In this document: piece by piece, positions 1,805 through 19,625 of the stretch
Numbering within the stretch: the stretch's first letter is position 1
Layout: each line of letters starts with the position of its first letter
NCBI GenBank assembly: GCA_000482145.1
Contig: AUXH01000367.1
Coordinates: forward strand, 1-19,625
Direction: 5' to 3'
Source of the DNA: Strigomonas culicis
Taxonomy: Eukaryota > Euglenozoa > Kinetoplastea > Trypanosomatida > Trypanosomatidae
DNA: 19,625 nucleotides
The notes under the pieces: generated by a model
Told to the model about the DNA's origin: nothing
Databases searched by the model: none
Seen by the model: the letters and a program-made list of their open reading frames with translations, nothing else
Program-made: the position numbers and the translations under genes

Positions 1805-2815
1805 TCAGGAAATGACGTTCCAAAATACAGATTTACTTCCCTGGACAGCCAACTTGTCCGCCATCTCGTTCCCACGAATGTTGCTGTGGCCCTTCACGTG
1901 GGTCAGCACAATCCCGCTGCCGCTCTCCCCTTCCTGCTTCGCCTGCCTCGCGTAGATGGCGTTGTAGGCGTCGCGGTGCGCCAGCAGCAGCTCCCACAGG
2001 TCCCTATTGCGCACGGGCTCGCCGGCGGTCGTCTTGAAGCCGTTCTGCACCCACTTGCGGTAAAAGGAGGTGAGGCCGTTAATCGTGTAGCGGCTGTCCG
2101 ACAGGATCTCCAGCGGTCGCAGCGGCCGCCGCACCTCCCGCGCGTCCGGCACACGCGGTGCGTCAAAATCGACCGGAGCGCCGGCGTCCGCGAAGCCCTG
2201 CTGGATCGCATGCAGCACCGCGCGCATCTCGCCGCGGTTGTTCGTCTGCTGCTCCTCCGGCGGCAGGCGGCGCGAGAAGTTGCGGGGGTCGCCGTCGCCG
2301 TAGTAGCCGCCGTAGCCGGCCTGCGCCCCCGCCTTGCCGTTGTTCGGGCACGCCCCGTCCACGTAGACGACCTGGTGGTTCGTCGGGGGCGGCGGCGCGG
2401 TGGCGGTCGGAAACACCTGTCGCTGGAGCTCCACGGCGGGAGGGCTGGGCGCGCGCTGCTGCTTGAGGTGGACGGGCGCCCCGATGACATTCACGTGCGC
2501 CGTGGACATGGCCGCCACCGCGGCCGCCGGGGCGGCGGTCGTCGCACCGCCGCGCGAGGTGAACTGCGCAGCCTCCTCCAGTGTGGGGAAGCTCTTGAAC
2601 ACGGCCCCGGGGTATCGGTGGACCTGCGCCGAGCACTCGTCCCAGGTGCTGTACACACCCGGGGCTCGGCCCGCCGCCACGGCGTAGAATTTGGCGGGCA
2701 TCGAAGAGACGCTCTGTTTCGGGGAGAGCGCACCCTTCTTCTTGATCTTGGAACGGAACAAACAGAGTGGTGTTACACAGAATATCTCATGGAGCCGTCG
2801 GCTCCGCACCAGCAT
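1805..2815 (-). CDS. RNH1: Ribonuclease H1, two possible starts
   Basis: 336 aa. It cleaves the RNA strand of RNA-DNA hybrids (R-loops, primers). The N-terminal hybrid-binding domain lies at about residues 42-86 (FYAVAAGRAPGVY, then FKSF and EEAAQF). An Ala/Pro linker is followed by the catalytic domain at about 147-330. The full catalytic set is present: D153 (VYVDGAC), E196 (NNRGEM), D240 (LSDSRY), H310 (HVKGHS) and D320 (NEMADKLA). The spacing between E196 and D240 is longer than in human RNase H1. There are two in-frame Mets. M1 begins a basic, hydrophobic 38-residue leader that could be a mitochondrial presequence; M39 begins MPAKFYAV right before the hybrid-binding domain. The Crithidia RNH1 gene is known to give nuclear and mitochondrial forms, so the same is likely here. 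Confidence 0.93.
   Translation of the reverse strand: MLVRSRRLHEIFCVTPLCLFRSKIKKKGALSPKQSVSSMPAKFYAVAAGRAPGVYSTWDECSAQVHRYPGAVFKSFPTLEEAAQFTSRGGATTAAPAAAVAAMSTAHVNVIGAPVHLKQQRAPSPPAVELQRQVFPTATAPPPPTNHQVVYVDGACPNNGKAGAQAGYGGYYGDGDPRNFSRRLPPEEQQTNNRGEMRAVLHAIQQGFADAGAPVDFDAPRVPDAREVRRPLRPLEILSDSRYTINGLTSFYRKWVQNGFKTTAGEPVRNRDLWELLLAHRDAYNAIYARQAKQEGESGSGIVLTHVKGHSNIRGNEMADKLAVQGSKSVFWNVIS
2747..2767 (-). promoter_or_regulatory. Possible internal spliced-leader acceptor in RNH1
   Basis: Inside the RNH1 frame, between M1 and M39, the minus strand carries a pyrimidine-rich stretch (complement of 2750-2767) ending in CCAAG with the AG at 2748-2747. Use of it would give an mRNA lacking M1 and starting 46 bases before the M39 codon. 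This is an inference from position and composition only. Confidence 0.35.
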
Positions 2816-3685: not shown

Positions 3686-5137
3686 TTACAGCGCATCAGG
3701 TGAGTTGGCAATCTCAAGGACACTGGAGACGAAGGTGGCGTACTCCAGTCTGTGGAAATTCAGCGCATCCCGGCTGTCGGGCGCGCCTACGATACGTGCG
3801 CACAGCGCACGCGTGGCCCGCGTGGCGCGTACCTGGTACTTCTCCAAAACAACATTCATCGCCTCCGCGCACTGGCCCAGCGTGACGTCGCTGCTGCCGG
3901 CCGCGGAGGGCCCGTTCTCCTCCTCCGACAGCATCATGAGCGCGAGCAGCAGGTCGCGCTTGTGCGGCCGCACCGCCAGGCACAGCTCGACCACCAGCTC
4001 CCACTGCGCCCGCTCGCGCGCGCGGCGCTGGCGGTCCTCGCGCAGCCGGTGGGCGTCCCGGGGGGCGCTCCGCTCCCAGAACTGGCGGCGCTGGTGGGAG
4101 GCGAGCGCCGACGTCGCGGAGGAGAGCACGGTGCGGAAGTGGCCCTTGCGCTGCAGCTCGCTGCGCGACTCGGCGTCCTCGCGGCTGGGGTCCGCGCCCC
4201 CCCTCCACGCGCGCTGGCCCCTGCTCGGCTGCGTGGGCGCGCGCCGCGGCTGGTGCGCGACGGACGGCTGCCGCCACGAGTGGTCGCAGAGCATGGCGCT
4301 GGTCACGTCGGCCAGCCGAGGGGTGGCGGCCGCCGCCGGGCGGTGGGCCTCCGCGTGGCCCAGGAACTCTTCAGCCATCTCCTCCGTGCGAGTGTCGGAA
4401 GCCTCCGACGGCGCGGGGGAGACGATGCCCGCGGCAGACGGGGGAAAGAGGTACTCCTCCGCGACGTCCACCTCCACCGTGCGCACGTCCACGAGCTGGG
4501 GAGTGGAGGGCTCCTCCTCCCACTCCCTCTCAACCGAGAAGTCCATGGCAATCTCCTCAACCGAGAAGTCCACCAGAACGGGCTCATCGTCGTCATCCTC
4601 CACCGGCAGGCCCTCCGGTCGGTGGGCCGCCACAGCGGAGGGGCGGGGCGTGGCGGGCGGGGAATGGTGCAGCGCCTCAGCGGCCGCCGTGTGGCCGTGC
4701 GCGATGGCAGAGGGCGCGGTGGTCTGTCGCGCGCCGCACCCTGTGGGGCGGCTGGCCGCGCTCGTGCCGCGCTCGCGGTGCGCGCGCTTCATGGTGACGG
4801 ACGGCGCCTTGGCGCGTGGCGGTGGGGAGGCGGCCGGCAGCGGCGACAGGACCACCGACTCGACCTGCGAGAGCCCCTCGTGCGCAGCACGCGTGCTGGG
4901 CGGGACAGCGGTCGGCCTCGAGCGCGCTGCGAGTGCCCCGTCGGTCACCCGCGCGATGTGGGGCGGCGACGGGGTGAGCGGAACGCGCTGTAGCATCGAG
5001 GTGGACACCGTGGGCTCGCCCTCGCTCGCACTCTCTGCCCCCTCCTCGTGGCCGCTGGACGAGGCGCTCCCGTCCACGGTGGTGGGCTCCTGCGGGGGGA
5101 GGGGGTCTGTGTACTTCGTCATGAGCTGATACAGCAT
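3686..5137 (-). CDS. Hypothetical low-complexity protein with basic/helical C-terminus
   Basis: 483 aa, not recognised. Residues 1-170 are Pro/Ser/Ala/Thr-rich and probably disordered. An acidic block near 180-225 contains DFSVE twice, nine residues apart (190-194 and 199-203), encoded by near-identical DNA at 4529-4543 and 4556-4570. Residues about 340-375 are highly basic (RRQFWER, REDRQRRARERAQWE). The last 110 residues look folded and helical, with LLLALMMLSEEE followed by a region ending FVSSVLEIANS. There is no signal peptide or membrane segment. A C/T tract with AG at 5144-5143 lies only five bases before the first ATG, so the second Met (MTKYTDPL, residue 6) may be the real start. Coding is supported by length, strand and fit in the array. 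Confidence 0.75.
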   Translation of the reverse strand: MLYQLMTKYTDPLPPQEPTTVDGSASSSGHEEGAESASEGEPTVSTSMLQRVPLTPSPPHIARVTDGALAARSRPTAVPPSTRAAHEGLSQVESVVLSPLPAASPPPRAKAPSVTMKRAHRERGTSAASRPTGCGARQTTAPSAIAHGHTAAAEALHHSPPATPRPSAVAAHRPEGLPVEDDDDEPVLVDFSVEEIAMDFSVEREWEEEPSTPQLVDVRTVEVDVAEEYLFPPSAAGIVSPAPSEASDTRTEEMAEEFLGHAEAHRPAAAATPRLADVTSAMLCDHSWRQPSVAHQPRRAPTQPSRGQRAWRGGADPSREDAESRSELQRKGHFRTVLSSATSALASHQRRQFWERSAPRDAHRLREDRQRRARERAQWELVVELCLAVRPHKRDLLLALMMLSEEENGPSAAGSSDVTLGQCAEAMNVVLEKYQVRATRATRALCARIVGAPDSRDALNFHRLEYATFVSSVLEIANSPDAL

Positions 5138-5419
5138 GACGACTTACGAGAGAAAAGAGCAAAATGGATCTAAATGTATTAATATATGTATATAGGTGTG
5201 TATCTATTTGTGTGTCTACAATCCTTTGCTTGCGTAGTAAAGAGTACATGAAGAGGAGGAGACGCTATAACCGCAATGCAAAAAGCTGACGTCCTACAAC
5301 TTAAAAGTGGTAGCGTATAAAACAACCACAAGAACAATCAAGTAGAAAAGTGGCACAGTTCGATAGAACAAGAATAAAAAAGTACAGGGAGAATACTCTA
5401 TTTTCGTTGGTGCTGGTAT

Positions 5420-5450
<31 letters not shown>

Positions 5451-5451
5451 T
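5138..5451. other. Intergenic region with simple repeat
   Basis: 314 bases, AT-rich, no supported gene. The left end has the C/T tract and AG upstream of the 483-aa gene. The middle has TATA-like simple sequence around 5175-5200. The right end is an AC microsatellite next to the stop of the 1123-aa gene. Confidence 0.6.
5425..5450. repeat. (AC)13 microsatellite
   Basis: Thirteen uninterrupted AC units on the plus strand, (GT)13 in the minus-strand transcript. It begins one base after the TAA stop (5452-5454) of the 1123-aa gene, so it sits at the very start of that gene's 3' UTR. Confidence 0.97.
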
Positions 5452-8400
5452 TTACTCATCTTCCATTGTAGACTGCAACTGTTTCGCACGGGCGGCCGCC
5501 ACCGTATCACCCAATGACGCCGCTTTCTGGTACAGCTCGAGTGCCTCCTCCTGCCTTCCCAGGACAGCCTCCAGTAGCACACCGTAGTTGTACGCGGTCA
5601 TGCGATCGTTGGGGTTCATCAGCAGACACGCGTCGTACCACTGTGCCGCCTTGTCGTAGTTCTTTTCAATGGCCTCTGCGAGGTAGGCCCGCGCCTTGGC
5701 GCCGGGCTCCATCCGCTCGTCGCACGCGGCGACCACCCGCTGCCACTCCGCCTTGGCGCCGGCGCTGTCCCCCTGGTGGAGGAGAGCCCACCCTTTCGTG
5801 AGCGCCCCCTCCGGCAGGAACTCGCCCTCCTCCTCGCGCGGCGGCGGCTCGTCCGCCTCGCGCGCGGACGACGCGCTGGACGGGACGGGGGCGGGACGAC
5901 TGACCTGCCGCACGCCGCGGACGGAGGAGGCGGCGGAGGAGGCCACGGAGGACTCCCTCGTGCTGTGCGACGGCTGGGTGCCGGAGGACAGCGGGTTCGG
6001 TGGGATGGAGCCCGCCACCGGCAGGTAGCGCGGGTAGGGGCCCGCGCCGCGGCGGCCCCGGGGGTCTGCGCTGTCGGTGCTTTCGTCCGGGTACAAGTCG
6101 GCGCGCATCCGATGCGCACTGAGCCCCGTGGAGCTGCCGTGGACACGGTCGGTGTGCCCGAACCGGCTTTCATTCAGCCCCGTCACGCGGATCGGCGGCG
6201 GCGGCGGCAGCGGCGCCTTCGCCTCGTCCAGGGCGCACAGCGGCAGCACCTTCTCCAGCGACGCGTCGGGCAGCCGCTCGCTCGCCCACGCGAGGAGATG
6301 GTCCAGCCCGCGCTGCTGCTGCACATGCTGCAGCGCGCCGACGACCTGGGTGGGCGTGGCGGCCTGCAGCGAGGCGGCGATCTGCTCCGAGAGGCGCCGC
6401 GCATGGGCGCGGGTGGCGTCGAGCTCGACCCGCTCGTTGCGGATGCGGGTCAGCTGCTCGTGGTCGGCCTGCTCCACCGCCGCCCGAATGCGGCCGATCT
6501 TCTCCTCCGTCAGGCGCTGCAGGCGCTCGATCTCCTTCATCGCGTTGACGCGCCGGGGGGCGTTCGCCATCATGCTCTCCTCCGTCTCCAGCTGCTTCTC
6601 GAGCGCCCCCATGCTCTCGCCGACGGCATCGGCCGTCCGCTGCACCTCCGCGAGGCGGTGCCGGGCGGCCGCGGCGGCCTCCTCGATGGACACGATGTCG
6701 TACCCCTTGTACTCGCCGAGCACCGCACAGCGGCTGCACACGAACTTGTCTGCATTCACAACGTAGAACTCCACCGCGCGCCCGGGGTGCGAGGGGCACG
6801 GCAGGACGGTGGGGTCCACCGTGCACTGCAGCAGGAAGCGGGGCATGATCTGCTGCAGCCGGAACACGAGGACGGCGGGGCCGCTGTTGCCGTCCGCAAA
6901 GGTGAAGCTGTCGAACTCGCGCGCCTGCTCCTTGGAGGGGGCGTCCGGCACCCGCGCACCCGCGGGGCACGCACAGCTGCGGCCGAGCGCGACGTCACAC
7001 AGCAGCATGCTCGTCGAGCGGAGCTCCCGCCAGTGGCGGAACGGCTCCCGCAGGAACACGACACCGGACGGGTGCGAGGGGCTCAGGCCGGTGGTCCACG
7101 TGCCGGCGCCCTCCCGCACAATGCGACGGAGCACCGCGTCGTCGCCGACAAGCGCGAGGCGCTCGACGCGCTGCTGCCTCATGCCGGCCGTCGCGGCGGC
7201 GAAGGCGCTGAGGTGCTCCCTGTTGGACACCGCCGTGACGCTGAGCACCTGGAGGCAGAGCGGCTCCAGGTGCACCAGCGGCGCGGCCTCAAACGCGACG
7301 GCGTCAAAGGACGGACTGCCCTTGCCGACCGGCTCCTCCCGCACCGCCTCCTCCAGCCGGCGCCGCCACTCCCGCACCAGCGCGCTGCGCTCGCTGCGGC
7401 TAAACGCCTCCATGCAGTCCACGAGGTCGGCGAAGGTGTCCTTGTCGCCGTAGAAGACGTCCGGCGGCTGCAGCCCCGCCGCCCGGACGGACGCCACGAG
7501 CCGCCCCCACAGATCGTCCATGTGTGCCGCGGCGCTGCGGGACGGGGCGTCGTGCGGCACCGGCACCAAGGCGCCGGGCGGCGGGGGCCTCGCCGGCGCG
7601 TCCTGCGTCACGCCCCGAGCGGCCGGCGCAGCGCTCTCGCTTGAGAAGAGGGCGTTCTTGAAGAATCCCTGCTGCGCGTCAGACGAGGGGGGCGACGACG
7701 GCTGCGCGGGGGGCGCACCCACGCGCTCGGCGGGACGGCGTTCCACCGCCTCCGGCTCCTTGGGGCTCAACGACAGGGATAGAAGGTGCTCCTTGTCGCG
7801 TGCGCCCTCCGAGCCAGGAGGCACCGCCGGGGAGCTCACAGATGACTGGTCCCGCGTGCGGCTCCGGGGGGTGGGTGACGACGGCGCCTTCTTCTCTTGA
7901 ATCGCTTGGTTTGGGGTGTAGTGGGAGGGCATGAACGCATAGGTGCGCGGGTCCGGCTCGGGACCAAATCGCTGAGTCAGTGCCTCAAACAGCTTGTCTG
8001 TCTCTGTCTTTGGGTTGTACGCGTGCAGCAGCCGACTCACGTCGCCTTTATCTCTCTGCAGGTGGTGCGTATTCAAGAAGGCAGTGAGGCGCGCATCGAC
8101 ATCGAGGTCAGCGAGCTCGGGACCATTATCCAGCACCAAGTTGCGGATGAGCTCTTCCTCTCTGTTTTCCCACTGGGCCACAAGGGTGGGCACCTGCGCA
8201 ATAAAGTCGGGCCCGTAGGTCGCAAAGAAACGCCTTAGCCGCTCGTCGTAGTCCTGCAGATTGTACTTGCGGTACAGCTTGGTGAAGGTGTCTACCTCGG
8301 GAACTGCCGCCACCACGTTGTCGATGAGACGGAGGCCCTGAGGGTTGTACTTCTCTAGAAACGCCTTCAGCCGTCGGCGGTACCCCTCCTTGTCGGCGGG

Positions 8401-8823
8401 GTCAACGGTGAACGAGAGGCCCACCTGCCCCATCTCCGTCCCTATCACACGTGTGGAGAGCTTTCTTCGCTCCACCACATCCTTCACGTCCACTGTGAAT
8501 GGCACAGAAGCGCCTACTAGCCGATTGGAGGCGTTGGCCTCCTTCACAAGCACCAACACCTCCACCCGAGGGGAGACGCAGTGCCACACCTTCGCATGGC
8601 TGAGCGCACGTGCCGCATCATCCAGGCGGACCTCAAACAGCTGCGGTGTTGACTCCGTGACCTCGCTGGCGGTGAAGGAGGCGGAGGGAGACGGCGCCCT
8701 GTGGGCCACAGAGACAGCCCCCCGCACTTGCGCCTCTACGGTGAACCTTTTATTTCCCTGGCATGCGTTCGGGGGGATGTTGACTAGGTTGTGTAGTGTA
8801 ACAAGCACTCGCCAACTTGACAT
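5452..8823 (-). CDS. Multidomain protein: C2-like, degenerate PARP-like fold, B-box, coiled coil, TPR/Sel1-like
   Basis: 1123 aa. Residues 1-140 are beta-rich and C2-like (MSSWRVLVTLHN). Residues 148-292 contain repeated RL-x2-F(L/F)-x2-Y-(N/G)-P-type units. Residues 300-430 are disordered. Residues 545-670 resemble the C-terminal half of a PARP catalytic domain: GVVFL at 587-591, MLLCDVALGR at 606-615, FDSFTF at 637-642 and VFRLQQIMPRFLL at 653-665. The H-Y-E triad positions appear lost. Residues 676-709 are a B-box (C676, H679, C696, C699) in which the usual GEHKGH is GEYKGY, suggesting one zinc site only. A long coiled coil spans about 710-830. A basic/Pro linker is followed by helical TPR/Sel1-like repeats at about 1005-1115. 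Function unknown; a structural or ubiquitin/ADP-ribose-related scaffold is conjecture. The PARP assignment is by-eye and moderate; B-box and TPR are firmer. Confidence 0.85.
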   Translation of the reverse strand: MSSWRVLVTLHNLVNIPPNACQGNKRFTVEAQVRGAVSVAHRAPSPSASFTASEVTESTPQLFEVRLDDAARALSHAKVWHCVSPRVEVLVLVKEANASNRLVGASVPFTVDVKDVVERRKLSTRVIGTEMGQVGLSFTVDPADKEGYRRRLKAFLEKYNPQGLRLIDNVVAAVPEVDTFTKLYRKYNLQDYDERLRRFFATYGPDFIAQVPTLVAQWENREEELIRNLVLDNGPELADLDVDARLTAFLNTHHLQRDKGDVSRLLHAYNPKTETDKLFEALTQRFGPEPDPRTYAFMPSHYTPNQAIQEKKAPSSPTPRSRTRDQSSVSSPAVPPGSEGARDKEHLLSLSLSPKEPEAVERRPAERVGAPPAQPSSPPSSDAQQGFFKNALFSSESAAPAARGVTQDAPARPPPPGALVPVPHDAPSRSAAAHMDDLWGRLVASVRAAGLQPPDVFYGDKDTFADLVDCMEAFSRSERSALVREWRRRLEEAVREEPVGKGSPSFDAVAFEAAPLVHLEPLCLQVLSVTAVSNREHLSAFAAATAGMRQQRVERLALVGDDAVLRRIVREGAGTWTTGLSPSHPSGVVFLREPFRHWRELRSTSMLLCDVALGRSCACPAGARVPDAPSKEQAREFDSFTFADGNSGPAVLVFRLQQIMPRFLLQCTVDPTVLPCPSHPGRAVEFYVVNADKFVCSRCAVLGEYKGYDIVSIEEAAAAARHRLAEVQRTADAVGESMGALEKQLETEESMMANAPRRVNAMKEIERLQRLTEEKIGRIRAAVEQADHEQLTRIRNERVELDATRAHARRLSEQIAASLQAATPTQVVGALQHVQQQRGLDHLLAWASERLPDASLEKVLPLCALDEAKAPLPPPPPIRVTGLNESRFGHTDRVHGSSTGLSAHRMRADLYPDESTDSADPRGRRGAGPYPRYLPVAGSIPPNPLSSGTQPSHSTRESSVASSAASSVRGVRQVSRPAPVPSSASSAREADEPPPREEEGEFLPEGALTKGWALLHQGDSAGAKAEWQRVVAACDERMEPGAKARAYLAEAIEKNYDKAAQWYDACLLMNPNDRMTAYNYGVLLEAVLGRQEEALELYQKAASLGDTVAAARAKQLQSTMEDE

Positions 8824-9155
8824 GATTCAACGCTGCTGTGTTACGCTCGCTAATCTTCAATGTGGTAGTGGGATGAACAGATACAGAAACGAGAAGACGG
8901 GAAAGGACAGACAGCAGGGTTAAAACACAGGGAATAAAAATACGTGTAGGAAAACAAGAAGAGGCAGAAAAAAGAAAGACGCGGATTGCAGTCGCCTGTA
9001 AGCGTCACTGCATTCGATAGATTTAATCGCAAACGCACCTTGTTACTAATTAAGAGTAGTTAAAAAACAACAACATGGAAAAACAAACGGAAAAAAAAAA
9101 GAGAATGTGATCGTCACGTTACGTTATTGTAAACGAGACAAGGAAAAAGGAAAAA
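8824..9155. other. Intergenic region
   Basis: 332 bases without a supported gene. It contains the splice signals for the 1123-aa gene on the left and the A-rich 3' UTR of the peptidase gene on the right. Confidence 0.6.
8855..8920 (-). promoter_or_regulatory. Predicted spliced-leader acceptor for the 1123-aa gene
   Basis: The minus strand has a long C/T-rich stretch (complement of about 8870-8920), then a short spacer ending TTGAAG with the AG at 8856-8855. The 5' UTR would be 31 bases. Confidence 0.5.
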
Positions 9156-11867
9156 CTATGACTTGCGCTCCTCATCGTAAATGTTCCTGCCGGATGGCTT
9201 GCCATAGCTGCCTGTCTTGGCGCCCGAACGCGTGCTCTCGCGCGCATCCCGTTCCTTTGCCTTGAACATTTCGTCAACCTTTTTCTGATCCAACTCCTTG
9301 TCCGTTGGCACCCAGAAGAAGGGTTCCTTCTCCGCCTTCACCTTGCGGAAGTTGGGTTCCCAGTCAAAGTTGTGCAGCTTCACGTGGTAGTCAATCCGCT
9401 CACGCTCCCAGTTATCCCACTTGAGGAATATTTTCTGCTGGTCCTCGTGGTCCATGACGCCGGTGGCCGTGAGGTTGTGCATATGCGTCATCACGTCCAT
9501 GTCGTTCAGCACCTTTCCGGCGCCCTCCAAATCGAGCTGCGAGCAAAGAAACGCAATCTCCTCACAAATGTTGTCCGTCTCACCCCAGAAGTAGTGGCCG
9601 CCGCTGCTCCGGACGCGCAACACCAACGGGCGCGCCACGGGGTCCACGCCCTTGCGCAGACGCTGGTGGCGCAGCTTGGCCACGTACTTGAGCGCATTCC
9701 ACGCGGGCACGCGGTCATCATCCAGGCATGCAGAAACGACCATACCGGGATAGATAACGCGATCGTTGATGTTGTAGTAAGGGTCGTACTGCTTTAGCAG
9801 ATCCAAATCCTTCTTGTTGTTCAGCGGGTCGCCCCAGTCCTCACGCTCCGCGAGTGACAGCGGCAGCTCGGGGTCGATCATGGTGTTGATGACGTCTAAA
9901 AAGGGCGAGCGAAGCAGGGCGTTCCCGAACAGACCGCACCCCCGCATATTCATGGCCGCCGCGATGGGGACGCAGCCGGCGCTTGTTCCTGCCGCCACCA
10001 TCAACTCCGGCTTTGTGTACCCCATCTTGACCATGTGTTCACAGCAGGCGATGAAGTCTTGCGTGGTCTTTATTTTTGTTTCCCCGCGGCCCTGATCGGC
10101 CCAGCCGGGGAGCTCGCCGCCGCCGCGCACGTGGGCGAAGGCCACGGTCCAACGGCGCCGAATCATCCACATATACGGCGCGAGCTGGAAGTGCATGGAG
10201 GGGACCTCACCGTACGAGCCGTACACGTATATCAAGCAGTGCTTGGGTGAGTTCGGCTGGGCCTCAAAGTCTGTCGCCTCCTGGATGTATGCATCGCGGC
10301 GCTGGCAGATGGTAATGGGAATCTCGGTGCCGTCCTCTGACACACACACGTCGCGGTACATGCTGTAGGGCCACATGTAGTCCCACGGGGTGAACTGATC
10401 GGCTTGCCGCTGCGTAAAGATCGCATCCGGCGCACATAGTTTAGCCTTTTCAGCGGTCATGTTGGAGTCGAACTTGTACACACAGTCGCGGCTCGGCTGC
10501 GTGATTCGGCTATAAATGAAACTGAAAGAGTCTTGGTCAAAGTTTTTATTCAGTCCTGGCGTCACCGACGACAAGGGGGGGAAGTGAATCACCACGTCAT
10601 GATCCCTGGGCGTGCGTGCTGCGGCCTCTATCCCCTCCTCACACTTAATGACGCGGATGTGCTGCTGTCGCTCAAACTTAAAGTGGTTTTCGTACACGAT
10701 GATACTACTTTTAAAAACATCGACGTCCGTGATCTGCACATCGTCACGATACGGTACGAGCTCCTTCCATTCGGCGTCGCCTCCCTGCTTCAATGCCATC
10801 TCCTCACGAATGTACTTGATGCGAAAATTGGGGCCCTTGTCGGACACCACCATCACAAAGTGGTTCTTGTAGTGCTCCAACCAGTTCCACCCACTTTTGC
10901 CAGCAATTTCAACAGGCTTTCCGTCTGGGAAAAACGGCTTCAACGGCGTAGGGATAATGGGGTACGATGCCGGAACGACAACCGCATTACCGTGCACCTT
11001 GGAGTCAGACGTGATGGTGATGAACTGGTTGTCCTTCGTTTTTCTCACATCCACAAAAAATTGCTCATTGTCGTCGCGGTAGATTTCGACCGGCGGCTCG
11101 AGAATACCGGGTCGCAGCTCTTGCATGAGAACGCGGTGCGGACGGTTCAACTCATTCGACTCGGTGTAAAAGAAGTAGTTTCCGGATCCGAACTCGATAC
11201 TAACAATATTCTTGCCGCGGATGACATGAAACAGGCTTGAGTTGTCAATGCTGCGCACGTGGCATATGTAGCGATCACCACCTTCCACCGAAAGTGTGTA
11301 GGCGAGGTACTTTCCGTCCTCGGACACACGGCAGACACCAACGGAGCAGTCCTTGTAGCCAAAGTGCTGTTGTAGTAACAGCGGGTTAATAAGCTCTTCA
11401 CCCAAGAGATCCACCTCACCGTACTTTTTCCGGTAGAAACCGATCGCGTTGGGGTCATGGCCAGGGACAACGCGGGTGAAGTAAACATAATCACCAATCC
11501 GCTCCTCCCCTTTGTCGAAGCCCCCCTCTCTACTCGATACCAAAACCTTTGCATCCAGTTCTGCCCATAAACGAGCCTTGTGGTGCTTGAAGTCGAATTT
11601 CGAGTCTACTAGTGAAAAGTGTTCCATCTCTTTCTTAATGTACTGATGTGTTTCTCTGTCGAACAAATCCTCCATGTACTGAAAAGGATCCTGTTTCTGG
11701 CGCTCTCCATGCAGCACAATGCTCTCAGGCTTTTCGATAGGAAGCGGCCCATCCAACATGGGCAGTGGGTACGTATTCCGAAACTGTGGGCAGAGTTTGT
11801 TTACAGACCTGCGAGCAAGAGTGTATACAGCATTGGATGTTGGCACCCATGGAAACAGAGCTGCCAT
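9156..11867 (-). CDS. OPB2: Oligopeptidase B-like serine peptidase, family S9A
   Basis: 903 aa. N-terminal beta-propeller of the prolyl oligopeptidase family (about 50-520) followed by an alpha/beta hydrolase. The catalytic triad is visible: S629 in GTSAGC, D717 in LDDDRVP and H758 in SGGHY. Family landmarks YGSYG (oxyanion region) and HVRGGGELP at 579-587 (E585) are present. Typical oligopeptidase B has GRSAGG and RGGSELG, so this is the divergent OPB-like (OPB2-type) branch rather than classical OPB. Classical enzymes are about 715-730 aa; this one has a charged C-terminal extension of about 110 residues, rich in Lys/Glu/Asp, and some extra N-terminal sequence. There is no clear signal peptide, so it is probably cytosolic, where relatives cut peptides after basic residues. 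Substrate preference here is uncertain because of the altered motifs. Confidence 0.93.
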   Translation of the reverse strand: MAALFPWVPTSNAVYTLARRSVNKLCPQFRNTYPLPMLDGPLPIEKPESIVLHGERQKQDPFQYMEDLFDRETHQYIKKEMEHFSLVDSKFDFKHHKARLWAELDAKVLVSSREGGFDKGEERIGDYVYFTRVVPGHDPNAIGFYRKKYGEVDLLGEELINPLLLQQHFGYKDCSVGVCRVSEDGKYLAYTLSVEGGDRYICHVRSIDNSSLFHVIRGKNIVSIEFGSGNYFFYTESNELNRPHRVLMQELRPGILEPPVEIYRDDNEQFFVDVRKTKDNQFITITSDSKVHGNAVVVPASYPIIPTPLKPFFPDGKPVEIAGKSGWNWLEHYKNHFVMVVSDKGPNFRIKYIREEMALKQGGDAEWKELVPYRDDVQITDVDVFKSSIIVYENHFKFERQQHIRVIKCEEGIEAAARTPRDHDVVIHFPPLSSVTPGLNKNFDQDSFSFIYSRITQPSRDCVYKFDSNMTAEKAKLCAPDAIFTQRQADQFTPWDYMWPYSMYRDVCVSEDGTEIPITICQRRDAYIQEATDFEAQPNSPKHCLIYVYGSYGEVPSMHFQLAPYMWMIRRRWTVAFAHVRGGGELPGWADQGRGETKIKTTQDFIACCEHMVKMGYTKPELMVAAGTSAGCVPIAAAMNMRGCGLFGNALLRSPFLDVINTMIDPELPLSLAEREDWGDPLNNKKDLDLLKQYDPYYNINDRVIYPGMVVSACLDDDRVPAWNALKYVAKLRHQRLRKGVDPVARPLVLRVRSSGGHYFWGETDNICEEIAFLCSQLDLEGAGKVLNDMDVMTHMHNLTATGVMDHEDQQKIFLKWDNWERERIDYHVKLHNFDWEPNFRKVKAEKEPFFWVPTDKELDQKKVDEMFKAKERDARESTRSGAKTGSYGKPSGRNIYDEERKS

Positions 11868-12198
11868 TGTATTGCTGTGCTTTGTTTGTTTTCTTTCTGA
11901 AGATGGAGAATGAAGAGAGCATAACAGTTACCAACAAAGGAAAAAAAAGAGTTCAAACCAATACAAAATGAGAGAGAGACAAGAAAACATCAAAACATGG
12001 ATGTTTCTAATTGGTACGTTTCGTTTTATTTGTTTGCTTTCTTAAGAGGACGCTGAGTGTTCACAGCATTAAGACAATAAAAAAAAAAGAGAAAAGAGGG
12101 AAAATGTTTGTATATTACTTTCCTTTTCTTTGATTATTATTGTTGTTTTTCTCTTGCTGTTCCAGCAACTTTGAGAAATATAAATGAAAAAGAGAGAA
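11868..12198. other. Intergenic region
   Basis: 331 bases, AT-rich, no supported gene. It carries the peptidase 5' UTR and splice signals on the left and the A/T-rich 3' UTR of the sterol dehydrogenase gene on the right. Confidence 0.6.
11897..11920 (-). promoter_or_regulatory. Predicted spliced-leader acceptor for the peptidase gene
   Basis: The minus strand reads a C/T-rich tract (complement of 11899-11920) ending CATCTTCAG with the AG at 11898-11897, 29 bases before the ATG. Confidence 0.6.
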
Positions 12199-13413
12199 TC
12201 AGTTTTTTTTATGAGCCTGGATATTGATCTTTTGCTGAGATCCTTGGGCGATACCAGCCATCGAGTTGTGGTCCATCTGCTGGAATTTAGGCAACCAGTT
12301 TTCCTTGAACCAGACAATGGTGTCCTCCCACCCTTCCTTGAACGGAATGATGGGCTGGTATTTGAGATCGTTTTCAGCAGCTTCGATACGGAACCAGCGA
12401 TTCATGGTCAAGACAAAAACATTGAACACATTCAGCTTAAATGTTGTCTGCATGATCATTCCCAGCAGCTCAGCAAAGAGTGCGACCATGTATAGGAACA
12501 TAAAAGGGTAGTGAAGTTTCTTCTGGATAGAAGGAAACCCCATTCCAACAATTGCCTTATCAAGCTCCTTCCAGAAAATGCAGTAGGCCGCGGGCTCGGG
12601 ATGTGTGTCACCATCCGTGACAATGTAGAACTTTCCAAGAACAGGAGATCCCTTGTACAACTGTTGTTCCGCAATAATCAGCCCATGGCAGTAATTGTCA
12701 ACATGCGTAAAACAGATACGATTATCGCCTTCTCCAAAAACACGCAGTTTTCCTGTACCAGCCGCCTCCAACATGTTCGGCAAGAAAAGGTTGTCCCGAG
12801 GTCCATACACTTGATGAGGTGCAACAGCGACGGCCCAGAAGTCATCGCTACAAGCTTTTACCATCTCCATTTCTCCTTCTGCCTTTGTTTGCGCATACAT
12901 TTGCATGTACGAATTCAGAGGTAAAGAGGGCATTTCGGCCTCGGTGAGGCCGTCAACGTTAGGCTGATGAAACAAACTTCCCTTGAATCGGGTAGACGGA
13001 GAAGAGCTGAACACTAGCTTCTTCACACCGTGCTCTTTGCATGCCCGAATAACATTGACAGTACCCCCATGGTTCACCTTGCGATACAAATTGGGTGGAT
13101 GAAATGGTCCAACCGCAGCTGCCAGATGCCACACGCAGTCAGAGCCTTTGATTGCCTTCGACACATCCTCGTAATTCGTGATGTCGCCAACCACGTACTC
13201 TATATGGGGGTTATCCCATACACCAATGGCCTTTTCCTTAGGGACAATGTCAAAGCACACAACCTTTTCGGCGCCACGCTCAACAAGCATTTCCACCAGC
13301 CGAGTACCCACAAAACCGGTTCCGCCAGTGACAACACATCTCTTGGGAACAGGAGGATACTGTTGCTGAGCTGCTTGCTTTTGCCTTTTAGAGAGAGCTG
13401 GATTGAGACTCAT
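12199..13413 (-). CDS. Sterol-4-alpha-carboxylate 3-dehydrogenase (decarboxylating), NSDHL/Erg26 type
   Basis: 404 aa, 3-beta-HSD family of extended short-chain dehydrogenases. The Rossmann signature TGGTGFVG is at 29-36, with D55 at the end of beta-2 indicating NAD preference. SSSPS is at 136-140, and catalytic Y173-x3-K177 lies in YAQTKAEGE. HQVYGPRD at 200-207 and CFTHVDN at 234-240 are typical family blocks. A hydrophobic segment at about 302-321 (YPFMFLYMVALFAELLGMI) probably anchors it to the ER membrane, as in NSDHL. The family oxidises and decarboxylates 4-carboxysterols in C4 demethylation, here presumably in ergosterol-type synthesis. The C-terminus ends HKKN, near but not matching a KKxx retrieval signal. 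Confidence 0.92.
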   Translation of the reverse strand: MSLNPALSKRQKQAAQQQYPPVPKRCVVTGGTGFVGTRLVEMLVERGAEKVVCFDIVPKEKAIGVWDNPHIEYVVGDITNYEDVSKAIKGSDCVWHLAAAVGPFHPPNLYRKVNHGGTVNVIRACKEHGVKKLVFSSSPSTRFKGSLFHQPNVDGLTEAEMPSLPLNSYMQMYAQTKAEGEMEMVKACSDDFWAVAVAPHQVYGPRDNLFLPNMLEAAGTGKLRVFGEGDNRICFTHVDNYCHGLIIAEQQLYKGSPVLGKFYIVTDGDTHPEPAAYCIFWKELDKAIVGMGFPSIQKKLHYPFMFLYMVALFAELLGMIMQTTFKLNVFNVFVLTMNRWFRIEAAENDLKYQPIIPFKEGWEDTIVWFKENWLPKFQQMDHNSMAGIAQGSQQKINIQAHKKN

Positions 13414-14181
13414 TGTGTAAATGGTATCTGGTCTTTTGTTGTGTGTTTGAGTTTTTTTTTTGTGTGTGTGTGTAAGTGAACCGCCTTTATATTATCAATG
13501 ACACAGTGTAGGTTTTTTTTTCGTTGTTTTAAAGTAGGATGATACTATTTCTTTTCAAGAAAAAAAAACAATTCACAGCGCGTAATTAACGTGAAAGGAA
13601 AATATCTATACAAAGATTTATTCTTTTTGTGTAATGCTAAGCAAAAAAAACGATCCTTTTAAATCAGAAAAAAATCAGCGATAAAAAAAAAGTAATGACT
13701 GATAAGATAACTCCTAACAAGAATAGAAAGAAAGAGAACCAAGGGTAAAAAAGAAGGACACATTTATAGGGTCAAAAAAAGAAAAAATAAGACATCACAC
13801 AACCACAAAAAAAAGGCACTTTTCTTTCCCTGTCTGCAACCATAATTATAATACTGTGTTTTTGTTTTTTTACCTGCGTTAATGATTTGAGTAAAACACA
13901 CCTTAATGACAAAACACAACTTTTATAGGTGCACAAATAATGAATATATTGCCTTCACATCGCTATTCATCAATAATATAAAGGTGTTCTTCGTCAGAAG
14001 GTGCCTCTGATTTGCCATGAGCATTTGGTATTTGCCATCTAACAATTAATTTACAAGTGTGTACAAGGAAATATATAATAAACATACTCGCTGAATATTT
14101 ATATTATGGATTTCATATGTACACATGTATCTTCAGAATCACCAACCAAGTGATAAATTACACCGTGTCAGCAGCATTATA
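13414..14181. other. Long AT-rich gene-free region
   Basis: 768 bases without a supported gene. It has many A- and T-runs, a GT run at 13461-13472, and no recognisable RNA gene. It must contain the sterol dehydrogenase 5' UTR at the left and the 3' UTR of the 438-aa gene at the right. Confidence 0.65.
13551..13570 (-). promoter_or_regulatory. Possible spliced-leader acceptor for the sterol dehydrogenase gene
   Basis: The complement of 13560-13568 is a T-run, followed by TTGAAAAG with the AG at 13552-13551. The 5' UTR would be 137 bases. Other AGs lie closer to the ATG, so the exact site is uncertain. Confidence 0.35.
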
Positions 14182-15498
14182 CTATTCTTCCAAAATGCAT
14201 TCAAGTGTATTCTTTTCCAGTGAAGAAGTCTCATCAAAAAAATCGGTTAAAGATGATTTTACAGGAGCAAGTGCTGGTCCATGGTTGAGTAGCGTTCCAC
14301 CACGGCTGCGTTTTCGGCTAAACAAGAGCTTCTTGAGAAAACTCGCATCAATCCCTTCAGAATTATCAACCCCAATTGGTGCATTAATTAAATCGCGACA
14401 AATCAAAGTAAGCTGATCGCAATCCCGGCATGTTGAGCTTGATCCATTGAAACTAATCTCCTGTGGAATTGTCTCAGACAGTTTTTCCTTCAGTTCCTTT
14501 GTCGTTGATTCCATCACTAAACGTGAAGGTTGGGCAATAGGAAAGGATTGGAGAGCCTCCGGAACTTCCTCTGAAATCTCACACGGTTCTGCGTCCACTG
14601 AAGCCAGAAAATGAATAATTCGTGGATTGATCAGTGGCATATTATCGGCGGAAGGCGCTGCATACGAATCACACGAAAGGCAAAACAGGCAGGATTCGGC
14701 AAAAAGAGAGAAAAACTGTCGATAGATAATCTTATTTCCACCTGTTATAAAAGACTGACCTGACCATGTGGACTTTGTGAGGTAATCCACCAGCTCACTC
14801 TGGCGAGTTCCTGCGCCTTCACTCAGCACTAACAATTTCCATACCACATGTAAGAAGAAACTCCAGGAATGTATTTTGTTGTTTTCGGCATCTATCAAAA
14901 TTTGTATTTTTTCGGATGCCTCATTAAAATCGCACTCTTTTGCAATAACAACTCTAGGCAAAACAATTGATATGAACTTACTGAAAATGACAGAGAACTC
15001 CTCCGTATTTTGTATTCTATTCAGTTGCATTTGATACGAGTTTCGAATGAACTCCACCACCTCGGTGTATTCCAAACTCTTGTGGGGTGTTCGCGCGGTG
15101 CAAAGATGCAACTCACTGGGCGGAACCTTTGTCGTTAGAGGTACAGTGGACTGATAGTCCGTTCCACAGCAACTGAGTTGCTGATAGTAACACCGACGGT
15201 CTCTTGATTTGGGATAGACAGCCGAAAGAAACTGGATTACAAACATTTTTTTGTCTCCGCTAAGAGGTGAGCAAGGTCCACTAATAAAATTGAGCACTTC
15301 CCACAAGGGTATGCATGATGCTGTTGCAACTGCCCCTCCCTGTGGATCCTTCAGTGTCGTTTTTTGCCATACATTTAGAACTAGATCTTTATACGCTTGG
15401 GCAAAACTTTGGTAGTTAATTTTATTATCACCAAACAAACCTTCTACAAGAGTAATAACGCCCTTTACGTAGTCTTCACAATCATTTTTGTCCGACAT
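14182..15498 (-). CDS. Hypothetical protein with NLS-like and PIP-box-like C-terminus
   Basis: 438 aa, not recognised. It is the first gene of the leftward array and notably AT-rich. Most of the chain (1-300) looks helical and globular, with several Cys including CLFCLSC. Near the end, RKRSR (395-399) resembles a nuclear localisation signal. Residues 414-421, KSSLTDFF, fit a PCNA-interacting box (position 1 Lys instead of Gln, Leu at 4, Phe-Phe at 7-8). Together these suggest a nuclear protein with a replication or repair connection, but this rests on short motifs. There is no signal peptide or membrane segment. The start is supported by a good splice acceptor 24 bases upstream. Confidence 0.75.
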   Translation of the reverse strand: MSDKNDCEDYVKGVITLVEGLFGDNKINYQSFAQAYKDLVLNVWQKTTLKDPQGGAVATASCIPLWEVLNFISGPCSPLSGDKKMFVIQFLSAVYPKSRDRRCYYQQLSCCGTDYQSTVPLTTKVPPSELHLCTARTPHKSLEYTEVVEFIRNSYQMQLNRIQNTEEFSVIFSKFISIVLPRVVIAKECDFNEASEKIQILIDAENNKIHSWSFFLHVVWKLLVLSEGAGTRQSELVDYLTKSTWSGQSFITGGNKIIYRQFFSLFAESCLFCLSCDSYAAPSADNMPLINPRIIHFLASVDAEPCEISEEVPEALQSFPIAQPSRLVMESTTKELKEKLSETIPQEISFNGSSSTCRDCDQLTLICRDLINAPIGVDNSEGIDASFLKKLLFSRKRSRGGTLLNHGPALAPVKSSLTDFFDETSSLEKNTLECILEE

Positions 15499-15689: not shown

Positions 15690-17330
15690 CCATTCGCGTG
15701 GGCGAGCCCATGGGGCCACCTGGTCCCAAACCCCAACGCGAACACGCCGCGCCCGGCCGCCAAAGCCACCCACGACGAGAGAAAAAACACACCAAACACA
15801 AACCGACGGGCCCCAAAGAAGATCAAATGGGCGCCCCGCCTGGTCGCGCGCCCGGGCCACGGGTGTCCACGCTGCGAAACCCGCCCCCCGACCCCTCGGG
15901 CCAAAACACCCGGGTCACCGCCCCCCGCCGGCCCGCCCGGCCCCAAAAGCAACCCCCCCCCCCTGCGCCGCGGACAGGCCCGGGCGGCCGCCCAAAGACG
16001 GCGGCCCACGCGAACGCGATAACACACAACAATATAACAAACAAAACAAACGAGCTGCGCAGGGGGCGACGCCCCCATCCCCGCCTTCATATCACCCAGA
16101 AGGAGCTCCTTGAAGAAAGAAAAAAAAAGAAAGAAAGCCCACGGAGATCCTGACACATCGATTCAAAAGCCAAAACAAAAGCACAAAGGCAAACAAACCC
16201 CCACCCCTACCCCCGGCCACCATTTCTTGCGCACCTCCGACCCAGCACAAAAGTAAGGGAGGAATTAAGAAAAAGAGCGGCCGCCCCTCTTCTTTCATTT
16301 TCACCCGAGAGGCGGATCTCAAAGGAGCCACGGGGAAAAACAGAAAGAAACAAAAACAGAAGCAAAACCACTCATGAGAGGCCGAGGACACCTCAAGGAC
16401 TGAGCCCACACCGATGCCAAAGAGTGCAAGACCCCTTTACCATGCAAAGGTGTGAATTTTGGGAGGAGGCGGCGCCCCCCATTGGCGAACTCTGGGGTGC
16501 ATCAGACTAAGTGAAACACCATGTTCTTCTGCTATTTCCCGCATTCAGTTTACCACAAGGTGTGCCACCTAATCAGATCCCATTTGACGCGAAAGAAGGA
16601 CGTTGTCTAACTTCCCGACGCCAAAGGACGCCCGCCATTAATGCGTGCGGAGGTGGGGGGAATCGATTACCCAAAGAACAACAAGAAGCCCCCTTAAAGC
16701 CGAGAACAGAAGCAACAAACAGATAATTACTCTTTCAGTATTACCCTGATCATTACTACGAAAAAAGTGGTTTCACTCTTCGCGTCACCCCTTCTTACCT
16801 CAGAAACCCCACGTCTTCTCAGCGCTGCAAAAAAAACGTCCTCATCCCTTCAAAACTCGCTCCACGCTATTCATGAGCCAAAAGCCCGAATCCACAAGAA
16901 ACAGTAAAAGAGAAAAAAGAGCCGGAGCATGCTAATGGCCGGGTGTGTTTTTCGCCCCCTTCGCACCCCTCGTCCCCTTTGTCGAAAAACAATTCGGCGC
17001 AACGGGCGCCCCCGCCCAACCCCCACGCGCGAGGATACCAAAAGCAACACAGGAACCCCAAAAAAGATCAGCGCGGAACACCCCCCACCCCTCGCCCTCA
17101 AAGCGAAATTGTGCAAAGAATAACCTAAAACGAAGCCAATCGCTGTGTTAACAGACAATCCGTGAGCGAAAGGGGCTCTTCACAAGCCTGCTGCTTACTT
17201 TGCGGGCAAAGGCCCGGCCGTGACCATCCTTACGCTATGGGGCTGTTTTCGGTTTAGGAATAAGGGGGGGGGGCGCCAACCTGGTGACCGCGCCCATATT
17301 AAAAACGCACAACGCCCAGCCCCATCGGAG
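15690..17330 (-). promoter_or_regulatory. Left arm of strand switch: G/T-rich for leftward transcription
   Basis: The top strand is rich in A and C and very poor in T (13 T in 300 bases at 15721-16020), so the minus strand, RNA-like for the leftward array, is G/T-rich. It contains C-runs on the plus strand, the longest 11 bases at 15953-15963. GC content is high around 15710-16010 and falls afterwards. Proposed Pol II start region by analogy with GT-rich start regions in Trypanosoma brucei. Confidence 0.6.
17264..17273 (+). repeat. Run of ten G
   Basis: An isolated G10 homopolymer near the middle of the strand-switch region, where the strand bias is mixed. Confidence 0.9.
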
Positions 17331-17599
17331 CCCAGTTTAAAAAGAACAGCATCATATTTCTTTTTCTTTCTCCTCTCTTCTTTTTTTTTTTTTTATGAGT
17401 GTTGGGTGGCCCTGGCCGTCCCCACCCCCTTGCCAAAAGGCTTCGCCCTCGAGCAAAGAAAACGACAGCCGCCCATTGGTTTGTTTATGTTTTCGAAATC
17501 GGGGCCAAAAAAAAGCAAGCCCCTTTTTAGCACGTTGTAAAGACCACGCAAACAGAGAATAAGAAGCGCGAAGAAACGAGCGGGGTATGGACATTAAGG

Positions 17600-18370
17600 G
17601 GGCGGGGGGAAAAAGAGAGCGGTGGCGGCGGGGCCCCCTCCTCCCTCTTCCACCCGCCTCTCGCCGCCCTGTTGCATTTTGGCCCTCGGCGGGGGGGGGG
17701 GCTTTTTTTTCTGATTCCTTTTCGTCGGCATGGAATGCGTGGGTTGTATTTCCCCCGCCGCTTTCGTGGCGTGTGTTGTTGGACTAGCATTTTTTCTGTG
17801 TGTTACGCTGGGCCTTGGCCCTTTTTTTTTTGCAAAGGGGCTTGGCGGACACAGGGTTTTCTGATTCCAGCGTCGGTTGTCTCTCGGCGGCCGCTGGCGC
17901 TCGGGGCATGGGTCGTCTTTTGTTTTGGGGGGCGGGGGCCCCGTTTGGGCCCGCGGGCAAGGGGCCCGGGGGGGGTGCTGGGCGCGCGGCCGCCACCTCG
18001 TTTTTGCCAGTTGGTGTTGCTTTTTGTCCCAGGCCAGGGGGGGGGGGTGGTTGTCGCTTCTCGTTTCCACTCGTTTTCGGCGGGCGGCGTGGTTGGGGTT
18101 GGTTTGGGCGGGCCGTGGGTTTGTGTGGTCGGGCACCCATTTGTGCTTCGTTTGTTCTTTGCGCCGGGGGGCAGGCTTTGGGGGGGCTCGTGGCGACGCT
18201 CCTTTTCGGCTTGTGGTTGCGGGGTTGTTGAGGTTGGGGTTTGTTTTCCGTGGGGGGGATGGGGGCGTATCTCGCCGTGCCCGGGGGTTGGGGATGGCGC
18301 TTTCCTTTTACGAAACGATTGGTGGGGCGCTGGGGTTACGAGCGGTGTTGCGCAATGTGCAATCACCATT
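17600..18370 (+). promoter_or_regulatory. Right arm of strand switch: G/T-rich for rightward transcription
   Basis: The top strand is G/T-rich and A-poor (12 A in 300 bases at 17941-18240), the mirror image of the left arm. G-runs include 11 at 17691-17701, 8 at 17968-17975, 11 at 18037-18047 and 7 at 18180-18186. Dense G-runs on the non-template strand favour G-quadruplexes and R-loops. Proposed rightward Pol II start region; the exact start cannot be read from sequence. Confidence 0.6.
17707..17876 (+). repeat. Direct repeat pair, 150 bp apart
   Basis: TTTTCTGATTCC occurs at 17707-17718 and 17857-17868; both copies are followed within 2-4 bases by CGTCGG (17723-17728 and 17871-17876). The sequence between differs. 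Confidence 0.7.
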
Positions 18371-19084
18371 TTTGTGAGAAAGGGTTAGGGATTGTTGCTA
18401 CAGCGGAAATAAAATGAGAGCCAATGATGGCGCCTCGTTATATCCTGGTTTAAAACATGTGGGGGTGGGGTTCGGAAACCTTTCTCTTTTTTTGTTTTTG
18501 CAGTTCAATTAAATGAAAAGTTTGTGGTGACTACGTCTTCTCTTCTTTAGATTCTTATTCCCTTTTCTTGTTTAAACTGGTGCCAACTACACTGAAAAAA
18601 GTCTCTGGAACAATCTCTGAATTCTTCTTTTTGTTTCATGCTACCTGTTGTAATCTGAATACAGAGAAATGAACGGACTCAAGAAAAAAAAAAGAATGGA
18701 GTGAAGTTGACTTACACCTCGTTATTTTAGTTGCCATGTGTAAATTAGCTCGACTTCTTCTTGGGTTGTATACTAATTGTTCTTCTTGTACGGAATGCAA
18801 TACATTTTGTTTATGTCTGATTTATTTGATAAGTATTTTAATTTTTTTTCCCTGTTGGCGGTTGATGCATTTTGATCATTTGTTTTTATTATATTTCTTT
18901 TTTTTCGAGAAAAAAATGCAGCTTTAAGTGCTTATTGTGAATCTTTTATTATCATTATTACAACGTAAGGCTATTATATGAATATACATATACACAAACT
19001 CTCAGCGCGTATAGTTTTCCAAGCAACAAATAACCTTTTTTTCATGCTCGGATTTCATTTCTGTGTTTTCTTTTTTGCTTCCTT

Positions 19085-19116
19085 AAATATATATATATAT
19101 ATATTATAATATATAT

Positions 19117-19148
<32 letters not shown>

Positions 19149-19250
19149 TCCATATCCATATCCATATCTATATCTATACCTATATATATATTTATTTATT
19201 TATATATTTATATATTTATATATTTATATATGTATATATTTATATGTATT
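19085..19250. repeat. AT-rich tandem repeat tract
   Basis: About 165 bp of almost pure A/T. TA dinucleotide runs with palindromic stretches (19087-19149) are followed by six hexamers of the type CCATAT/CTATAT (19150-19185), then ATTTATAT-like units (about 19190-19245). It is likely to melt easily or extrude hairpins. Confidence 0.9.
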
Positions 19251-19381: not shown

Positions 19382-19625
19382 ATGTCCGATTCCACCAAGA
19401 AACCCGTGCGTGTTACCTACATTTGGTTGTCTGGTAAGGATTCACACCATGATATTCGGAGCAAAGACCGCACCATGTACATGACGGAAGAAGAAATCAA
19501 GAAGGACCCGAAAGAGTTGCTCGCTGATTCATTTTTCCCCATCTGGAACTTTGATGGCTCTTCTACTGCTCAGGCAAAGGGTTTGAATACCGAAATTTTG
19601 CTGAGGCCCGTCAATGCGTACCCTT
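19382..19625 (+). CDS. GS: Glutamine synthetase, type II (eukaryotic), 5' part only
   Basis: 81 complete codons; the gene continues past the window. It opens MSDSTKKPVRVTYIWLSG and contains IRSKDRT (25-31) and the family block WNFDGSST (55-62), followed by QAKGLNTEILLRPV, matching the N-terminal beta-grasp domain of eukaryotic GSII. The enzyme makes glutamine from glutamate, ammonia and ATP. The ATP- and metal-binding residues lie in the missing part. It is the first gene of the rightward array, directly downstream of the AT-repeat tract and a splice acceptor. No N-terminal targeting signal is seen. Confidence 0.95.
   Translation, partial: MSDSTKKPVRVTYIWLSGKDSHHDIRSKDRTMYMTEEEIKKDPKELLADSFFPIWNFDGSSTAQAKGLNTEILLRPVNAYP

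What the first reader, a model, noticed from the sequence alone, without database searches (positions are those of the whole stretch)
15690..18370. Mirror-image strand asymmetry in the divergent strand-switch region
In 300-base samples the left arm top strand has 13 T (15721-16020) and the right arm top strand has 12 A (17941-18240). So the outward RNA-like strand is about 4% A on both sides and G/T-rich, with the sign change near 17.5-17.6 kb. GT-rich elements are known to drive Pol II transcription and H2A.Z deposition in T. brucei. This looks like an extreme two-sided version and gives a sequence-only estimate of where the two start sites separate. The left arm is about twice as long as the right.
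Basis: partly seen in the sequence, partly recalled or inferred. Interest (0 to 1): 0.75.

Follow-up and report, generated by a model that had tools for sequence, protein, structure and literature searches.

The report
Two-sided GT-rich trypanosomatid start region
Between two gene arrays that run away from each other, the DNA letters are lopsided in opposite directions on the two sides, which is the known sequence mark of where trypanosome-type parasites start reading their gene arrays, here in an unusually strong form.

Summary
The counts are exact, and the skew flip exceeds everything in the background examined. The window is from a trypanosomatid: a 3-beta-HSD-family protein is 86% identical to that of Angomonas deanei, the best named match, but its place in a tree is poorly resolved. 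Six minus-strand ORFs lie left and the start of glutamine synthetase lies right, so the tract is a divergent strand-switch region.

Segmentation finds two outward-facing GC-rich cores, 15701-16020 and 17621-18360, around a weakly skewed 1.6-kb spacer. The only two other switches found by gene orientation, in 200 kb of the same genome, show a smaller flip of the same sign. Such coding-strand G and T bias is published for T. brucei and L. major, so I file this as a strong new member of a known kind. Transcription itself is not shown.

Less expected: fourfold-site GC is about 0.4 in most genes beside the switches and about 0.85-0.9 beyond 10 kb, and it climbs even within one 12-kb ORF.

A genome-wide outward pairing of poly-G runs failed on a fresh test.

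The parts
15701..16020 (-). left core: GC-rich (0.73), T 4% on top strand, so G/T-rich and A-poor on the leftward RNA-like strand; holds an 11-base poly-G on the minus strand (15953-15963)
16021..17620 (.). spacer, GC 0.51, weakly skewed (top-strand G+T 0.40)
17576..17693 (.). most likely sign change (5 lnL interval; best 17670, cumulative minimum 17577)
17621..18360 (+). right core: GC 0.64, A 6%, G 40%, T 30% on top strand; two 11-base poly-G runs (17691, 18037)
14182..15498 (-). first leftward ORF, 438 aa, no Pfam match; fourfold-site GC 0.39; the only hit among 3928 candidates is a 100% identical 354-aa record with no source, probably itself
12199..13413 (-). 3-beta-HSD family protein (relatives named steroid dehydrogenase-like)
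9156..11867 (-). prolyl oligopeptidase family protein
5452..8823 (-). 1123-aa ORF, weak TPR match below the cutoff
3686..5137 (-). 483-aa ORF, no Pfam match
1805..2815 (-). RNase H1-like protein (RNase_H plus Cauli_VI domains)
19382..19625 (+). start of glutamine synthetase, cut by the contig end (Gln-synt_N, 27.8 bits, below the cutoff of 33.4 for this fragment)

Best explanation
This is a divergent RNA polymerase II transcription start region of a trypanosomatid. Shown: ORFs diverge from a tract without recognised genes, and each side carries a GC-rich core whose coding strand is G/T-rich and nearly free of A. Inferred: each core is a one-directional dispersed promoter. G-rich, A-poor non-template DNA disfavours ordinary nucleosomes and favours H2A.Z/H2B.V chromatin, and polymerase starts on the inner side of each core and runs outward, leftward from about 16.0-17.6 kb and rightward from about 17.6 kb.
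For: Gene layout. Exact counts and background. V-shaped flip in G+T minus A+C: window 318 (0 of 763 background windows as deep); the only two other switches found by gene orientation in 200 kb, C1 and C2, give 190 (3 of 763) and 175 (4 of 763), and those 3 and 4 all come from one background place. A poly-G-selected locus on C29 gives 264 (0 of 763). Of 247 poly-G runs of 11 or more in the genome, the only 2 in those 200 kb lie in the 2 switches. In T. brucei, coding-strand G/T 10-mers are enriched at the 5' end of start regions, and synthetic GT-rich elements drive directional transcription and H2A.Z deposition. In L. major PRO-seq, one of three prototypic divergent switches has a centre virtually free of polymerase, as a two-core layout would predict. 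No tRNA and no Rfam match at gathering scores in the window.
Against: No transcription or chromatin data. Only one gene, cut short, marks the right array. Of 11 further places picked by 12-base poly-G, 7 show no unusual V (164 to 689 of 763), among them C13, whose skew is one-sided; their gene layout is mostly unknown. With T minus A alone the flip is less exceptional at C2 (7 of 763), C15 (33) and C16 (49). Poly-G orientation did not predict outward pairing on a fresh test. In T. brucei it is not obvious that GC skew dictates R-loops (passage), so the step from a G-rich strand to chromatin is not established.
Confidence: 0.85

Rival explanations
1. The skew is a mutational footprint of transcription (strand-biased repair or R-loop deamination near start sites) rather than a promoter signal.
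For: The sign, G+T excess on the coding strand, is what transcription-coupled mutation would give (recalled from mammalian work). Fourfold sites of genes have a small excess of that sign (0.02-0.08 by distance bin); single genes reach 0.29, and two genes near switches have 0.19 (window 12199-13413) and 0.20 (C2 54788-56017).
Against: The excess in the arms (0.39 and 0.47) is at least 4.6 times the largest bin mean. The first leftward gene, about 2 kb from the sign change, has -0.04. Segmentation breaks at 15.70 and 18.36 kb, although the right flank keeps a mild excess (G+T 0.58).
Confidence: 0.25
2. It is a replication origin, and the flip is a leading/lagging-strand skew or an origin signature.
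For: A bidirectional origin gives the same sign. Some kinetoplastid origins are at strand switches (recalled). A T. [quoted passage not shown]
Against: The strong skew is confined to under 3 kb, whereas replication skew should reach far. In the same T. brucei study, start, termination and head-to-tail regions were not enriched for origins (passage).
Confidence: 0.08
3. A chance composition fluctuation or an unrecognised coding region.
For: Long ORFs cross both cores (191 aa minus, 238 aa plus).
Against: 0 of 763 windows have so deep a V, and 0 of 4192 are as poor in A or T. All three stop codons contain A, so A-poor strands stay open trivially. The 238-aa frame has no Pfam match; the 191-aa frame was not searched.
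Confidence: 0.02

Closest known systems
GT-rich RNA polymerase II start regions of Trypanosoma brucei (Wedel et al. 2017, PMC5579346)
   Same: G/T bias and long G or T stretches on the coding strand, directional
   Different: here two compact cores, very GC-rich (0.73 and 0.64), with A near 4-6% on the coding strand; no functional data
Divergent strand-switch regions of Leishmania major mapped by PRO-seq (PMC11708010)
   Same: divergent gene arrays; three prototypic layouts shown: empty centre, overlapping, head-to-head
   Different: here the layout is read from sequence only: two cores with a 1.6-kb spacer in this window, one small island in each of C1 and C2

Membership tests
kinetoplastid divergent Pol II start region | two gene arrays running outward | tested here: met
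   six minus-strand ORFs left (three with clear Pfam matches), glutamine synthetase right; the right array rests on one gene cut by the contig end
kinetoplastid divergent Pol II start region | G over C and T over A on each coding strand | tested here: met
kinetoplastid divergent Pol II start region | poly-G runs on the coding strand | tested here: met
   11-base runs at 15953 (minus), 17691 and 18037 (plus); but at C1 and C2 the one run each is on the minus strand only, runs of 10 also occur outside switches, and orientation is a poor genome-wide marker
kinetoplastid divergent Pol II start region | H2A.Z, H2B.V, acetyl-H4 or acetyl-H3 chromatin | not testable with these tools
   needs ChIP
kinetoplastid divergent Pol II start region | 5'-triphosphate or nascent RNA diverging from the tract | not testable with these tools
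   needs RNA data
Pol III gene cluster at a strand switch | tRNA, 5S or snRNA gene in the tract | tested here: not met
   0 tRNAs, 0 Rfam matches at gathering scores
replication origin | origin activity | not testable with these tools
   needs nascent-strand or fork mapping
inverted duplication of one promoter | the two arms align as inverted copies beyond composition | tested here: not met
   local alignment score 33; 14 of 100 dinucleotide shuffles reach it; the inverted repeats listed between the arms are mostly low-complexity

The most novel reading that the evidence does not exclude
In this lineage each divergent start region is written into the genome at two scales: an island of up to a few kilobases, T-poor on one side and T-rich or A-poor on the other, and around it a trough some 5-10 kb to each side across which fourfold-site GC climbs from about 0.4 to 0.85-0.95. 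The trough would be a mutational or gene-conversion fossil of the start-region chromatin domain (of the same order of size as the ~10-kb H2A.Z regions of T. brucei), so that start domains could be mapped from sequence alone.
Probability: 0.3. Interest if true: 0.65.

Novelty: new member of a known kind. Interest (0 to 1): 0.42.

Why it matters
Conserved promoter motifs for most trypanosomatid genes have escaped detection, and what DNA marks their start regions is still being worked out (passages). A very strong, two-sided example in a lineage outside Trypanosoma and Leishmania would support GT-rich coding strands as an old, shared start signal. If the wider GC ramp holds at all switches, base composition could locate start domains in genomes with no chromatin data.

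Tried and rejected
Poly-G orientation as a genome-wide marker. All 247 runs of 11 or more G were listed. Leaving the window's 3 runs out, opposite-strand neighbours 700-3000 bp apart were 8 outward to 0 inward (permutation p 0.004), but I chose that spacing after seeing the data; over 0-3000 bp it was 11 to 5 (p 0.07). A fresh test added runs of exactly 10 G, the first 100 of 242 places (the tool lists only these, contigs C2-C146). New pairs 700-3000 bp apart were 2 outward to 2 inward for neighbours and 3 to 9 over all pairs; under 700 bp, neighbours were 5 to 3. I reject it as a marker.

Arms as an inverted duplication: rejected. Of 13 arm pairs aligned, C29 left with C1 left and the window's right arm with C2 right beat all of 100 shuffles, and 17 8-mers occur in 5 or more of 7 loci against 1.4 in shuffles; the listed ones are mostly G, T or G/C tracts. 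No motif is claimed.

G-quadruplex motifs: 3 in the cores, all on the outward strand, but none at C1 or C2, both strands at C29, and minus strand only at C13, C15 and C16. Runs free of A or T, or of G/T only, did not separate switches from background. A spliced-leader pattern had no match. The tract has no copy elsewhere in the genome that the search found, for 17600-18400 and 15690-17600 (that search skips simple repeats).

Full report
What was checked. The finding's two counts are exact. The contrast with the rest of the genome was measured on the first 100 kb of contigs C1 and C2 of the same assembly (taken by contig number, not by content) and the rest of this window. Of 4192 overlapping 300-bp windows, 0 are as poor in A or T as either arm, and 0 reach the arms' TA skew. 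The cumulative G+T minus A+C sum falls and then rises again by 318 with its minimum at 17577; 0 of 763 background 3-kb windows have so deep an outward V, and the deepest of them is 223. All background windows at 175 or more lie in one place, C1 93-97 kb, an AT-rich stretch that I could not classify. The 3-kb windows over the switches were placed by hand.

What it is. Pfam places a prolyl oligopeptidase, a 3-beta-HSD-family dehydrogenase and an RNase H1 on the minus strand to the left, and the start of a glutamine synthetase on the plus strand to the right (the last match is below the curated cutoff, the gene being cut by the contig end). Three further minus-strand ORFs on the left have no Pfam match above its cutoff. 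The 3-beta-HSD protein's best named match is Angomonas deanei at 86% (120 of 1112 hits listed). A tree of 16 rows that I chose pairs it with an unnamed 93% relative (support 100/99), with A. deanei the nearest named row by path and the deeper order unresolved. I therefore call it a trypanosomatid, probably of the Angomonas side, without naming a species. The first leftward ORF has no relative besides what is probably itself among 3928 candidates.

Anatomy. Segmentation on four-letter composition finds a left core 15701-16020 (A .23 C .46 G .27 T .04), a weakly skewed spacer 16021-17620, and a right core 17621-18360 (A .06 C .24 G .40 T .30), between flanks of GC 0.40 and 0.33. The sign change is 17576-17693 within 5 lnL. 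'Left twice as long as right' is true only if the weak spacer is added to the left core.

Other switches in the same genome. In the 200 kb of C1 and C2, gene orientation shows one divergent switch on each contig, if two ORFs on C1 (5879-6484, inside the island, and 29775-30668, alone among plus-strand ORFs) are taken as spurious. Both switches hold a small GC-rich island in an AT-rich stretch, T-poor on its left edge and followed by a T-rich right flank, with outward V depths of 190 (3 of 763) and 175 (4 of 763). One search looked for runs of 12 G; its loci cover 12 distinct places (two runs on C18 counted as one). The C2 place is the switch just described. Of the other 11, C29 has a V of 264 (0 of 763), C15 139 (5 of 763) and C16 (L021) 131 (10 of 763). 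C7 has 108 (34 of 763). The remaining 7 (C13, C18, C4, C6, C12, C16 at L022, C22) are ordinary (164 to 689 of 763). With T minus A alone the counts are: window, C1 and C29 0, C2 7, C15 33, C16 (L021) 49 of 763. At C15, open frames of 564 nt run outward on both sides of the island; at C29 only the left side shows one. So the flip is a repeated property of the switches that I could read, strongest in this window and at C29, and poly-G alone does not define a switch.

Mechanism. Wedel et al. (PMC5579346; abstract and sections 5 and 7 read) report in T. brucei that 10-mers enriched on the coding strand of start regions mostly contain long G or T stretches, that this agrees with earlier reports of G-to-C and T-to-A skew in L. 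major and T. brucei, and that synthetic GT-rich elements drive orientation-dependent transcription and H2A.Z deposition. The present cores fit that description on both strands. The most likely working is two one-way dispersed promoters back to back. That is inference: no RNA or chromatin data are held. In L. major (PMC11708010, passages), PRO-seq shows three prototypic layouts of divergent switches, one with a centre virtually free of polymerase; a two-core layout with a spacer would be expected to look like that.

Rivals. A mutational origin of the skew is the serious rival. Fourfold sites of genes have the same sign but only 0.02-0.08 by distance bin (single genes up to 0.29), against 0.39 and 0.47 in the arms. 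Near switches the picture is mixed: -0.04 in the first leftward gene, 0.19 in the second, 0.20 in the first plus-strand gene of C2. A replication origin would give the same sign but should reach further; in a T. [quoted passage not shown] No Pol III gene was found.

A wider pattern seen on the way. Genes close to the three switches are AT-rich at fourfold sites. The set is 66 ORFs of at least 200 aa, picked mechanically; I dropped two on C1 and three in the window as spurious, and the RNase H1 ORF is missing because an overlapping plus-strand ORF had displaced it. The 10 whose near end is within 5 kb of a switch have fourfold GC of 0.39-0.85, seven of them under 0.5; the 50 at 10 kb or more never fall below 0.698 (Spearman over 66: 0.52, p 8e-6; genes on one contig are not independent). 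The 6 in between pool to 0.80, one of them at 0.51. Inside one 4083-aa ORF that starts 1.3 kb from the C1 switch, fourfold GC goes from 0.48 in the first 510-nt bin to 0.86-0.97 in the last four (24 bins, rho 0.81). A similarly long ORF 29 kb from the C2 switch shows no trend (rho -0.01). This rests on three switches, and no convergent switch was available as a control. I did not find it described in searches, of which I saw the listings and, for some papers, passages only.

Negative result. I first thought that poly-G runs face outward in pairs genome-wide. The test on fresh data failed; details are under tried and rejected.

Verdict. It is a strong new member of a known kind.

Noticed in passing
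C1 7663-19914 (L032-L033), C2 48-60 kb (L046-L047), window 3686-15498: Fourfold-site GC rises from about 0.4 beside divergent switches to about 0.85-0.9 beyond 10 kb, even within one 12-kb ORF.
   Followed up: partly
window 14182-15498: 438-aa ORF next to the switch with no Pfam match and no relative besides what is probably itself among 3928 candidates.
   Followed up: partly
C1 93-97 kb (L041): AT-rich stretch with the deepest background outward V (223) and long G/T runs; could be another start region or chance.
   Followed up: no
window 19087-19249: TA-repeat array upstream of glutamine synthetase.
   Followed up: no
G000 genome-wide: 247 runs of 11 or more G in 203 clusters (3-kb linkage); 44 neighbouring pairs lie within 3 kb, 2 of them in this window, where about 10 are expected for random placement of the 244 other runs.
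   Followed up: partly
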